Shown one piece after another: positions 1 to 4,923 of a stretch of 5,084 nucleotides of DNA; position 1 is the stretch's first letter, and the number at the start of each line of letters is the position of its first letter. The position numbers and the translations under genes were made by a program. Source of the DNA: JBDRGX01 sp043817485 [NCBI: bacterium] (lineage in GTDB: Bacteria > JBDRGX01); assembly GCA_043817485.1 (NCBI GenBank), contig JBDRGX010000127.1:1-5084 (forward strand), read 5' to 3'. The notes beneath the pieces were generated by a model. It did not search any database and was not told where the DNA came from. It saw nothing but the letters and a program-made list of their open reading frames with translations.

Positions 1-35
1 ACCATCACAAACATTGTTTTAAATATTTTGCTCAT
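1..35 (-). CDS. N-terminus of an unidentified protein, cut by the window edge
   Basis: Only the first 11 codons are inside the window: MSKIFKTMFVM, with a twelfth codon starting GT. The start is well supported. An AAAGGAG Shine-Dalgarno sequence lies at 43-49, seven bases before the ATG, the best-spaced ribosome-binding site in the window. The visible peptide has a positively charged start (K3, K6) followed by hydrophobic residues, which would fit the start of a signal peptide or membrane segment, but too little is seen to decide. It follows alr on the same strand after 278 bp and appears to have its own sigma-54-type promoter at 185-201. Function is unknown. If the frame closes soon after the edge, the call fails. 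Confidence 0.72.
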   Translation of the reverse strand, partial: MSKIFKTMFVM

Positions 36-45
36 TGTAATTCTC

Positions 46-78
46 CTTTGACATGAAATGTCTTTGACATAAAATGTC
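46..78 (-). repeat. Tandem 16-bp repeat, each unit a GACAT-N3-ATGTC palindrome
   Basis: Two adjacent 16-bp units (46-61 and 62-77) differ at one base. Each centres on a perfect 5-bp inverted repeat with a 3-base middle: 50-62 and 66-78. The left palindrome abuts the AAAGGAG of the edge gene (43-49). As DNA they could be a paired operator. As RNA they would be two small hairpins just before the ribosome-binding site. The repeat and symmetry are directly visible. The regulatory role is inferred. Confidence 0.6.
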
Positions 79-142: not shown

Positions 143-169
143 TTACCTCCTTTTTTCTTTTTTGCTCAT
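143..169 (-). other. Orphan AAGGAGGT ribosome-binding sequence ending an 8-codon mini-ORF
   Basis: On the minus strand AAGGAGGTAA is close to the ideal anti-16S match, yet no ATG, GTG or TTG follows at a usable distance. The same bases end a mini-ORF, MSKKEKRR then TAA (169 to 143), whose ATG lies about 5 bases after the transcription start predicted from the sigma-54-type promoter. It could be a ribosome standby site, a leader peptide, or a relic of a lost gene start. The low-complexity A-rich codons leave chance as a real possibility. Confidence 0.25.
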
Positions 170-184
170 CTACTTTTAATAATA

Positions 185-201
185 AGCAAAATTCATGCCA
201 A
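185..201 (-). promoter_or_regulatory. Sigma-54 (RpoN) type -24/-12 promoter for the edge gene
   Basis: The minus strand reads TTGGCATGAATTTTGCT. The known sigma-54 consensus is TTGGCACG-N4-TTGCW, and only one fixed position differs (T for C after TGGCA). The invariant GG (199-198) and GC (187-186) are separated by exactly ten bases, the required spacing. Transcription would begin near 174 and run left into the gene starting at 35, giving a leader of about 140 nt. Two TGT-N10-ACA dyads lie about 98 and 129 bp upstream of that start, where sigma-54 enhancer-binding activators usually sit. A sigma-70 reading (TTGGCA, 17 bp, TAAAAG) also exists but fits less well. The match is seen. Dependence on RpoN is inferred. 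Confidence 0.72.
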
Positions 202-256: not shown

Positions 257-315
257 TTTAATATGTACCTAAAAGAACACTTTTTTATTTAATATGTACC
301 TACAAGTACACTTTT
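257..315 (-). promoter_or_regulatory. Two enhancer-like TGT-N10-ACA sites in a 28-bp direct repeat
   Basis: The 28-bp units at 257-284 and 288-315 match at 26 positions and have a 31-bp period, close to three helical turns, so bound proteins would face the same side. Each unit holds a 16-bp dyad: 264-279 (TGTACCTAAAAGAACA, one arm mismatch) and 295-310 (TGTACCTACAAGTACA, perfect TGTAC/GTACA arms). TGT-N10-ACA is the outline of known NifA-type activator sites, but other sigma-54 activators use similar dyads, so the activator is not identified. The right-hand unit runs into the alr stop codon. Position relative to the promoter at 185-201 is typical for upstream activating sequences. Confidence 0.6.
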
Positions 316-1459
316 AATTAATTATTCGGGGAATATGTTCTGGAATTCTTGAAATGATTTCATAACTAATTGTTCCAGATAATGAAGCTAATTGTTCAGC
401 AGTTATTTTTTCTTCTTTTTGATTACCTATTAAAACTACTTCATCTTCAATTTTTACATTTTTTACATTAGTTATATCAATTATCATTATATTCATACAA
501 ATTCTTCCACGAATAGGGCATCTTTTTCCTTTAACTAAAACATATCCAATATTAGAAAGATTTCTGGGATAACCATCATAATAACCAATTGGTAAAATAG
601 CTATTTTTATTTTTGAAGTAGTTTTATAAGTACAACCATATCCAATAAAAGAATTTTTAGGGACTTCTTTTATTTGAGCAATTTTTGTTTTCCATGTTAA
701 AATTGGTTTTAATTCTAAATGATTTTTTGGATTTTTGTCTATATAGGAAATATATATTTCTTTTGATGGCCAAAGTCCATATAAACTAATACCTATTCTT
801 ACTAAATTAAAATATGTTTCTGGAAAAAGAATAGTTGCAGCAGAACAAGTAGTATGTTTATAAATAGGATTTAATCCAAAAATTTCTATTTCATTTGACA
901 TTTTTAAAAAATTATTGAGTTGAAATTTTGCATAAATATGATTAGTAGTATCTTCAATATTAGCAAAATGAGTAGAAATTCCTTCTAATTGAAGTAAAGG
1001 ATTTTTTTTAATAAAATTAAGAATAGATGGTAAATTCTTTTTTAAAATACCTTGTCTATAAGTACCAGTTTCTAATTTTAAATGAAGATAAGATTTTTTT
1101 GAAAGTTTTTCAGAAAAATAAGATAATTTTTCAATAGTTTCTTGATTATACACTGTTATTCTAAAATTATTTTTTACTATTTCTTCTAAATAATTAAAAG
1201 GAACATATCCCATAATAAGAATTGGTTTTTTAATTTTTTGCTTTTTCAAAAAAATTGCTTCTTCAATAGAAATTACTCCCAAAAAATCTATATTAGTTTC
1301 TTTAATTATTTTTGAAATTGGTAAAAGCCCATGTCCATAAGCATTACTTTTTATTACAGATAGTAGTTTAATATTTTTTCCTAAAAGGTTTTTAAATTGG
1401 CTAACATTGTCTTTAAAAGCATTTTTATTTATTTCTATCCATGTTAAATAATTACTCAT
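314..1459 (-). CDS. alr: Alanine racemase
   Basis: This cytoplasmic PLP enzyme interconverts L- and D-alanine, supplying D-Ala for peptidoglycan. At 381 aa it is full length for the family. The N-terminal TIM-barrel carries the PLP-lysine motif VIKSNAYGHG (K37). Other expected features are LKLETG..R (K128, R135), THFAN (H164) and RIGISLYG (R221, the residue near the PLP pyridine nitrogen). The C-terminal beta-domain has GYGCTY, where Y274 is the likely second catalytic base, then IGYYDGYPR, RGRICMN (M322) and ISYEIISRI (Y366). The usual Asp of the CMD motif is Asn here. All catalytic residues are present, so it should be active. The ATG overlaps the previous gene's TAA by one base (TAATG), with GGAG at 1467-1470 seven bases upstream, inside that gene. 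It is the last gene of the packed glycosyltransferase cluster, and its stop touches the enhancer-like repeats at 257-315. Confidence 0.96.
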   Translation of the reverse strand: MSNYLTWIEINKNAFKDNVSQFKNLLGKNIKLLSVIKSNAYGHGLLPISKIIKETNIDFLGVISIEEAIFLKKQKIKKPILIMGYVPFNYLEEIVKNNFRITVYNQETIEKLSYFSEKLSKKSYLHLKLETGTYRQGILKKNLPSILNFIKKNPLLQLEGISTHFANIEDTTNHIYAKFQLNNFLKMSNEIEIFGLNPIYKHTTCSAATILFPETYFNLVRIGISLYGLWPSKEIYISYIDKNPKNHLELKPILTWKTKIAQIKEVPKNSFIGYGCTYKTTSKIKIAILPIGYYDGYPRNLSNIGYVLVKGKRCPIRGRICMNIMIIDITNVKNVKIEDEVVLIGNQKEEKITAEQLASLSGTISYEIISRIPEHIPRIIN

Positions 1460-3795: not shown

Positions 3796-4923
3796 TTATC
3801 CTTCTATTATTTTTTGAAGTTTTTGAATAATTACATTCCAATTATATTTTTTTATTATTTCATTCCATTCTTGATTCCAAATACTATTTTTTTCTTTTTT
3901 AATTGCATTTACCCAATTTTCTATTTTTCTTTCAGTTAAAACAAGATGTGGAAAATTCAAATAAACTAATTCTTGCAAAGGAGTTGCGATTACTTTTTTT
4001 TGTGAAGCTCCATATTCAAGTACTTTTAAAGGAAAAGCATAATCAGTAAAAGGTATTTTTATGAATGGTAAAACTCCAAGATCAATTACTTTAAAAAATA
4101 AATGAATTTTTTCTGGAGATATATTTTGAGTGAAAATTATATTTTCATTTGCTAATTTTTCGAATTTTTCAATTTCAGATCCACCTCCTATTATAAACAA
4201 TCATTTATTTGGTATATCTAATTTATTAAAAACTTCTATTAAAAAATCCAATCCAGACCATGAACCATGATATCCAATAAAACCAATAACAAATTTTCCT
4301 TTTAATTTATATTTTTCTCTAATTCCTTCTAATTCTGTGTTTGAGAAGTTACTGAATTGAAACAATGAAACTCCATTAGGAATAAGTATTGCATCTTTAT
4401 TATATTTTTCTTTTATTATTTTAGATAATGAATTAGAAATAGTAATTACTTCATTTGATTTTTCAATTTCATTTTTTATAAAATTTTCTATATAATTTTT
4501 TGTTTTTGAAATACAAATAGAAGTATGTTCATCCACTAAATCATAAATATATTTTACATTTTTTAATTTTGGCGAAGGATAATAATAAGTATTAGCATTT
4601 ATTACAACATCTATTTTATGTTTTTTAATAAATTTTGTTATTTGCCAACAATTATATTTTGCCATAAATTTTTGTGGTATATATAAACTTTAAATTTTTA
4701 CATAAAAAAGATTATCTTTTAAAATAATTAAAGGTTTAAATAAAAAAAAATGTTTTATTTCATTTAAAATTTTTTTAAATAAAGTTTTAGGGGTAAAAGA
4801 TAAATAAGGATACCATGTTAAATAATAAACATTGTAATTTTTTTGTAAAATTTTAGCTATTTCTTGTGATCTTATTTTTATATTTAATAAAGGTGTATGT
4901 GGAATTATTAAAATGTTTTTCAA
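3796..4923 (-). pseudogene. GT4-type glycosyltransferase with two in-frame stop codons
   Basis: One continuous reading frame of 375 codons has the size and layout of a complete GT-B glycosyltransferase but contains TAA at codon 78 (4690-4692) and TGA at codon 241 (4201-4203). The frame is kept across both. Before the first stop: KNILIIPHTPL and a Rossmann-like N-terminus. Between the stops: IYDLVDEHTS, VITISNSLSKII, LIPNGVSLFQF and FVIGFIGYHGSWSGLDFLIE. After the second: LFIIGGGSEIEKF, then FPLKVLEYGA with the conserved Glu at codon 303. The TGA splits the beta-strand before IIGGGSE, where Trp would fit. The apparent start is TTG at 4923 behind AAGAGG (4930-4935). The internal ATG (4665) and TTG (4200) have no ribosome-binding sites, so the pieces are unlikely to be separate genes. 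No frameshift is present despite many A/T runs, suggesting recent loss. Sequencing error or strain polymorphism remain possible. Confidence 0.85.

What the first reader, a model, noticed from the sequence alone, without database searches (positions are those of the whole stretch)
185..201. Near-consensus sigma-54 promoter in the gap after alr
TTGGCATG-N4-TTGCT with exact GG-N10-GC spacing is a strong RpoN signature, and several of its G/C positions are improbable in such AT-rich DNA. It faces the edge gene and has paired dyads at enhancer distance. It implies that the unseen gene is switched by an ATP-dependent activator. If the host belongs to a reduced candidate-phylum lineage, sigma-54 control would itself be unexpected.
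Basis: partly seen in the sequence, partly recalled or inferred. Interest (0 to 1): 0.75.

Follow-up and report, generated by a model that had tools for sequence, protein, structure and literature searches.

The report
Sigma-54 promoter with paired enhancers
A very AT-rich bacterial DNA fragment carries a well-formed, activator-controlled (sigma-54) gene switch in front of a gene cut off at the fragment's edge; this is an ordinary kind of switch, and the neighbouring gene does not show that its owner is one of the reduced bacteria in which such a switch would be a surprise.

Summary
On the minus strand, 201-185 reads TTGGCATG-AATT-TTGCT with GG-N10-GC spacing. It fits all 12 fixed bases of the sigma-54 consensus used for Clostridiales, TTGGCATNNNNNTTGCT (PMC6615313). 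In this 20.8% GC DNA the exact core arose in 1 of 3000 shuffles of the window and 0 of 20000 of the intergenic region. Upstream lie two 28-nt direct repeats 31 bp apart, each with a TGT-N10-ACA dyad, centred about -98 and -129 from the expected start; 0 of 3000 shuffles gave such a repeat. Downstream are a Shine-Dalgarno sequence and 11 codons of an unseen gene. Best reading: an ordinary sigma-54 promoter driven by an unseen enhancer-binding activator. A candidate-phylum host is not supported: the window's Alr groups with three genomes of an order whose four held genomes all carry rpoN, although the next branch is Gracilibacteria-class. No genome is held for the window, so host rpoN, activator and transcript start are untested.

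The parts
185..201 (-). -24/-12 (sigma-54) promoter TTGGCATG-N4-TTGCT; expected transcript start about 174-173
   Evidence: consensus TTGGCATNNNNNTTGCT used for Clostridiales, PMC6615313 passage; top score in the window (17.3 against 10.4 for the next) with a matrix built from 21 sites of three rpoN-bearing genomes
264..279 (.). Proximal enhancer-like dyad TGTACCTAAAAGAACA (TGT-N10-ACA), centre about -98
295..310 (.). Distal enhancer-like dyad TGTACCTACAAGTACA (TGTAC-N6-GTACA), centre about -129, 31 bp (about three turns) from the first; its 28-nt repeat copy (288-315) reaches into the alr stop codon
257..315 (.). Pair of 28-nt direct repeats (257-284, 288-315) that carry the two dyads
   Evidence: 93% identical; 0 of 3000 shuffles have such a repeat
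1..35 (-). First 11 codons of the unseen edge gene, MSKIFKTMFVM..., with Shine-Dalgarno GGAG at 46-43; about 139 nt of leader from the expected start
   Evidence: reading of the sequence
50..78 (.). Two tandem palindromes GACATTTTATGTC (78-66) and GACATTTCATGTC (62-50) just before the Shine-Dalgarno: possible operator of another regulator, or leader RNA hairpins
   Evidence: 0 of 3000 shuffles with two GACATNNNATGTC; RNA fold of the leader is not unusual, z -1.31
314..1459 (-). alr, alanine racemase; last gene of the upstream transcription unit, same strand as the edge gene
   Evidence: TIGR00492, 345 bits against cut-off 168

Best explanation
The gap after alr holds an ordinary sigma-54 promoter unit. 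RNA polymerase with RpoN would bind at 201-185. A hexameric AAA+ enhancer-binding activator would bind the two TGT-N10-ACA dyads about 98 and 129 bp upstream, on the same face of the DNA, loop to the polymerase and melt the promoter with ATP. The transcript would start near 174 and, after a leader of about 139 nt, express the edge gene separately from the glycosyltransferase-alr operon before it. Shown: sequence match, spacing, repeats, gene start and orientation. Inferred: RpoN and activator in the host, looping, start site, the gene's function.
For: Exact consensus match, rare by chance. It fits all fixed bases of the consensus used for Clostridiales (PMC6615313, passage). Best site in the window by a matrix from 21 sites of three rpoN-bearing genomes, 17.3 against 10.4 (those sites were picked by the same pattern). 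Paired 28-nt repeats with dyads at enhancer distance, 0 of 3000 shuffles (the test was shaped after seeing them); TGT-N10-ACA is the NifA activator format, usually at least 100 bp upstream (PMC2820453, passage). Shine-Dalgarno and start codon downstream in the right direction. The best-scoring Alr relatives lie in an order with rpoN in 4 of 4 held genomes, where the exact motif occurs 21 times in 3 of 4 genomes against 0 for the reversed pattern. In 14 of 21 of those sites a 6-bp-arm dyad lies 20-160 bp upstream of the motif, against 31 of 93 control stretches of the same loci, not matched for composition.
Against: No genome is held for the window, so rpoN and an activator gene could not be sought. 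The exact 16-mer also occurs 78 times (52 of 145 genomes) in the class of G002, whose phylum has an RpoN domain over cut-off in 1 of 379 genomes, so the motif alone is not proof. G171, an rpoN-bearing genome with the best-scoring Alr, has none of the exact motif. No copy of repeat plus promoter was found in viral contigs (no other collection was scanned for it). A sigma-70-like site (9 of 12, 229-201 minus) overlaps it; such sites are as common as chance (4 found, 4.1 expected). The leader of about 139 nt is long. The dyads could bind a regulator that is not an enhancer-binding protein.
Confidence: 0.85

Rival explanations
1. The -24/-12 match is a coincidence; the edge gene is read from a sigma-70 type promoter, and the repeats are operators of an ordinary repressor or activator.
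For: The same 16-mer occurs about once per two genomes in a class where RpoN is rare (78 in 145 genomes; RpoN domain over cut-off in 1 of 379 genomes of the phylum). A 9-of-12 sigma-70-like site lies at 229-201 minus. Host RpoN unverified.
Against: In DNA of this composition the exact match came up in 1 of 3000 shuffled windows. It sits in the gap before a gene start, in the right orientation, with paired dyads at enhancer distance. The sigma-70-like sites are no more frequent than chance.
Confidence: 0.12
2. The host is a member of the candidate phyla radiation that uses, or has kept a relic of, sigma-54 control.
For: Gracilibacteria-class genomes hold Alr sequences up to 54% identical to the window's, as high as G171, and form the next branch of the tree. 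One genome of that class (G040) encodes a protein with a sigma-54 DNA-binding domain over the Pfam cut-off (32.9 against 22.8 bits).
Against: Alr groups the window with G171, G178 and G001 rather than inside the Gracilibacteria-class branch (99/93, 91/93). PF04552 is over its cut-off in 1 of 379 sampled genomes of the phylum; that protein is 300 aa, shows no other sigma-54 domain and has no match in the other 73 of 74 genomes of its order.
Confidence: 0.05

Closest known systems
Sigma-54 (RpoN) -24/-12 promoters, consensus TTGGCATNNNNNTTGCT used for Clostridiales (PMC6615313, passage seen)
   Same: All 12 fixed bases, spacing, and activator-type dyads upstream.
   Different: Host, activator and target gene unknown; I found no sign of a clostridial host, but no clostridial genomes were searched as a group.
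[quoted passage not shown]
   Same: Both dyads fit TGT-N10-ACA; centres about -98 and -129, usual place at least 100 bp upstream.
   Different: The dyads have longer arms (TGTAC...GTACA, one mismatch in the proximal copy) and nothing ties them to nitrogen fixation. Resemblance of format only.
-24/-12 sites of the order holding G001, G165, G171, G178
   Same: Same 16-mer pattern, often with dyads upstream and an open frame downstream.
   Different: Many of their dyads are of other kinds (for example GTGCAAATTTTGCAC), and the stretches read are 33-41% GC.

Membership tests
Sigma-54-dependent promoter | GG and GC dinucleotides ten bases apart within TGGCAY-N5-TTGCW | tested here: met
Sigma-54-dependent promoter | Upstream enhancer dyads, typically within a few hundred bp, often paired in helical phase | tested here: met
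   centres about -98 and -129, 31 bp apart; that they bind an activator is not shown
Sigma-54-dependent promoter | A gene downstream on the same strand | tested here: met
   start codon 35-33 minus with GGAG at 46-43; only 11 codons visible
Sigma-54-dependent promoter | rpoN in the same genome | not testable with these tools
   no genome held; 4 of 4 held genomes of the order with the best-scoring Alr have it
Sigma-54-dependent promoter | AAA+ enhancer-binding activator in the same genome | not testable with these tools
   no genome held
Sigma-54-dependent promoter | Transcript start about 12 nt downstream of the GC pair | not testable with these tools
   needs RNA data
NifA-controlled nif promoter | TGT-N10-ACA upstream activator sequence | tested here: met
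NifA-controlled nif promoter | nif target gene and nifA in the genome | not testable with these tools
   11 visible codons of the edge gene are too few, and no genome is held
Candidate phyla radiation (Gracilibacteria-class) host | Alr falls among sequences of that class | tested here: not met
   next to that branch, not in it (one gene, biased sampling, so weak for the host as a whole)

The most novel reading that the evidence does not exclude
The window comes from a strongly reduced, 21% GC lineage (symbiont or candidate phylum) that has kept a working sigma-54 and activator circuit for one surface or secreted protein, with a second pair of palindromes as a repressor site in the same leader.
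Probability: 0.08. Interest if true: 0.55.

Novelty: new member of a known kind. Interest (0 to 1): 0.22.

Why it matters
If true, one more gene of an unidentified, very AT-rich bacterium is under ATP-driven, activator-dependent control, and the paired TGTAC-N6-GTACA dyads give a concrete enhancer motif to look for once its genome is known. It changes no view of how sigma-54 works. It would matter more only if the host proved to be a reduced lineage, for which the evidence here gives no positive support.

Tried and rejected
Candidate-phylum host: rejected as favoured reading after Alr searches in one collection and five groups of genomes and two trees. One search used 57 rows after I dropped duplicate proteins and those under 330 aa; for I took out 21 of these 57 by hand (long branches and rows with near relatives kept) and added eight from the phylum of G011. 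I did not add the rows to a tree. Both trees flag the window's amino acid make-up as unlike the rest, and one search finds only genomes that share an exact 8-residue stretch, so closer relatives in phyla that I could not reach may exist. L014 and L028 (labelled Proteobacteria and Burkholderiales) fall inside branches of candidate-phylum sequences and are probably mis-binned contigs (inference).

A known RNA in the leader: no Rfam match at E up to 1. Leader fold not unusual, z -1.31, 16 of 200 shuffles fold as well. No tRNA. Plasmid or phage origin: no DNA match; Alr in plasmids at most 41% identical in the 8 rows listed of 429, all under 60%. Viral contigs: no relative of Alr or of the second glycosyltransferase, and no copy of repeat plus promoter. 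Glycosyltransferase 1 in the four genomes of the order of G171: full-length matches 28-33% identical, only short pieces higher, not useful for placing the host. Papers: 'sigma-54' with 'Patescibacteria' gave one paper and 'Candidate Phyla Radiation' with 'RpoN' two, seen as search listings only; so I found no paper on sigma-54 control in that group by these two searches, in a library of open papers. Searches were seen as listings. I saw passages of PMC2820453, PMC4641369, PMC6615313 and PMC12316311; no whole text. The strings TGTAC and GTACA do not occur in the main texts of PMC4641369 and PMC6615313.

The reversed-pattern control in the genome search is not matched for composition: it gave 22 against 78 in the class of G002, where RpoN is rare (my counts of the rows), so I rest on shuffles of the window itself.

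Full report
What is in the sequence. The window is 5084 bases at 20.8% GC. The genes recognised lie on the minus strand: a broken third and two intact GT4-type glycosyltransferases, then alr (314-1459), then a gap, then the start of a gene that runs off the window at base 1. In the gap the minus strand 201-185 reads TTGGCATG-AATT-TTGCT. GG (199-198) and GC (187-186) are ten bases apart, as sigma-54 promoters need (established knowledge). The expected start, 12 nt downstream of GC, is at about 174. A Shine-Dalgarno GGAG (46-43) and ATG (35-33) open the edge gene, MSKIFKTMFVM...; so few residues allow no family, though the basic and hydrophobic start could be a signal or membrane segment (inference).

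Is it more than chance? An exact match arose in 1 of 3000 dinucleotide-preserving shuffles of the window and in 0 of 20000 shuffles of bases 1-313; the looser TGGCAN6TTGC in 0.93% and 0.065%. The bare GG-N10-GC is uninformative: 3 seen, 2.2 expected. A matrix built from 21 sites of three rpoN-bearing genomes ranks the site first in the window, 17.3 against 10.4 for the next; those sites were chosen by the same pattern, so this is a consistency check. Against this, many windows were presumably read in the scan, and the exact 16-mer occurs 78 times, in 52 of 145 genomes, in the class of G002 (the 78 is my count of the rows), in whose phylum RpoN is rare. I did not test each of those 145 genomes for RpoN.

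The enhancers. Upstream lie two 28-nt direct repeats, 257-284 and 288-315, 93% identical and 31 bp apart. Each holds a dyad of the form TGT-N10-ACA: TGTACCTAAAAGAACA (264-279) and TGTACCTACAAGTACA (295-310). The centres lie about 98 and 129 bp before the expected start, close to three helical turns apart. None of 3000 shuffles of bases 1-330 gave a 28-nt direct repeat with at most two mismatches within 60 nt; the test was framed after the repeats were seen. TGT-N10-ACA is the format of the NifA activator site, usually at least 100 bp upstream (PMC2820453, passage); I claim the format only, not NifA.

A second pair of dyads. GACATTTTATGTC (78-66) and GACATTTCATGTC (62-50) sit in tandem just before the Shine-Dalgarno; 0 of 3000 shuffles had two GACATNNNATGTC. 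They may be an operator or small leader hairpins; the leader's RNA fold as a whole is not unusual (z -1.31), and the window matches no Rfam family at E up to 1. The same bases, read on the plus strand, form an 11-of-12 sigma-70-like site (48-75), but the number of such sites in 1-500 is what shuffles give (4 against 4.1).

The host. No genome is held for the window. The best-scoring Alr relatives I found are 52-54% identical, in G171, G178 and G001 (469, 451 and 432 bits); the record behind G001 is labelled Candidatus Cloacimonadota. The Peregrinibacteria-labelled G002 is equally identical, 54%, at 426 bits. The best in the phylum of G011, labelled Spirochaetes, is 50%, and the best full-length matches in the phyla of G012 and G016, labelled Aegiribacteria and Sumerlaeota, are 48%. 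Counts of genomes with any match in those calls (68 of 145, 109 of 120, 142 of 149, 41 of 42, 24 of 28) include far more distant alanine racemases. In trees of 57 and 44 rows the window groups with G171, G178 and G001 (99/93 and 91/93, the second below the tool's mark for firm support). The next branch, 30 and 24 rows (99/98 and 98/98), is nearly all Gracilibacteria-class, and it is the sister of the window's group. The end branch of the window is long and its amino acid make-up is flagged. So Alr does not name the host; it puts the window beside, not inside, the candidate-phylum branch.

Sigma-54 in those groups. Of 4 held genomes in the order of G171, 4 carry the RpoN DNA-binding domain. The exact motif occurs 21 times in 3 of these 4 genomes and the reversed pattern 0 times; G171 itself has none. 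In 14 of the 21 sites a 6-bp-arm dyad lies in the 140 bp that end 20 bp before the motif, against 31 of 93 control stretches from the same loci, which were not matched for composition. In the phylum of G002, 3 of 379 sampled genomes show a PF04552 match and 1 is over the cut-off. That one, in G040, is a 300-aa protein with no other sigma-54 domain in the scan, with no match in the other 73 of 74 genomes of its order. Of 23 genomes behind 23 of my first 31 loci, 5 had RpoN; their records are titled Cloacimonadota, Spirochaetes, Aegiribacteria, Proteobacteria and Sumerlaeota.

How it most likely works. RpoN-polymerase waits at -24/-12; an activator on the two dyads loops and opens it with ATP; the edge gene is then transcribed apart from the glycosyltransferase-alr operon. 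The promoter anatomy is shown; the proteins and the looping are inferred from what is established for this class. The consensus used for Clostridiales, TTGGCATNNNNNTTGCT (PMC6615313, passage), fits the site at every fixed base, which suggests that the T in GGCAT is normal in AT-rich genomes.

Verdict. A convincing but ordinary sigma-54 promoter with paired enhancer-like sites, in an unidentified AT-rich bacterium. It is a new member of a known kind.

Noticed in passing
3796-4923 (minus): The third glycosyltransferase gene is one continuous frame broken by a TAA (4690-4692) and a TGA (4201-4203): a pseudogene or an assembly or sequencing fault. TGA as a sense codon is unlikely because the second glycosyltransferase ends in a TGA that overlaps the next start (2622-2625), and a TAA breaks the frame too.
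   Followed up: partly
50-78: Two tandem palindromes GACAT-N3-ATGTC, 16 bp apart, directly before the Shine-Dalgarno of the edge gene; regulator unknown.
   Followed up: partly
143-169 (minus): A tiny frame ATGAGCAAAAAAGAAAAAAGGAGGTAA (MSKKEKRR) right after the expected start, opening with the same ATGAGCAAA as the edge gene and ending in a strong GGAGG that has no ATG, GTG or TTG after it at normal distance.
   Followed up: no
1459-1461 and 2622-2625: Tight stop-start overlaps (TAATG, ATGA) couple the two intact glycosyltransferases and alr in one operon, so the edge gene needs its own promoter or read-through.
   Followed up: no
L069:1438-2340 (minus), genome G040: A 300-aa protein with a divergent sigma-54 DNA-binding domain (32.9 bits, cut-off 22.8) and no other sigma-54 domain detected, in one genome of the class of G002 and without a match in the other 73 of 74 genomes of its order; relic, contaminant or something new.
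   Followed up: partly
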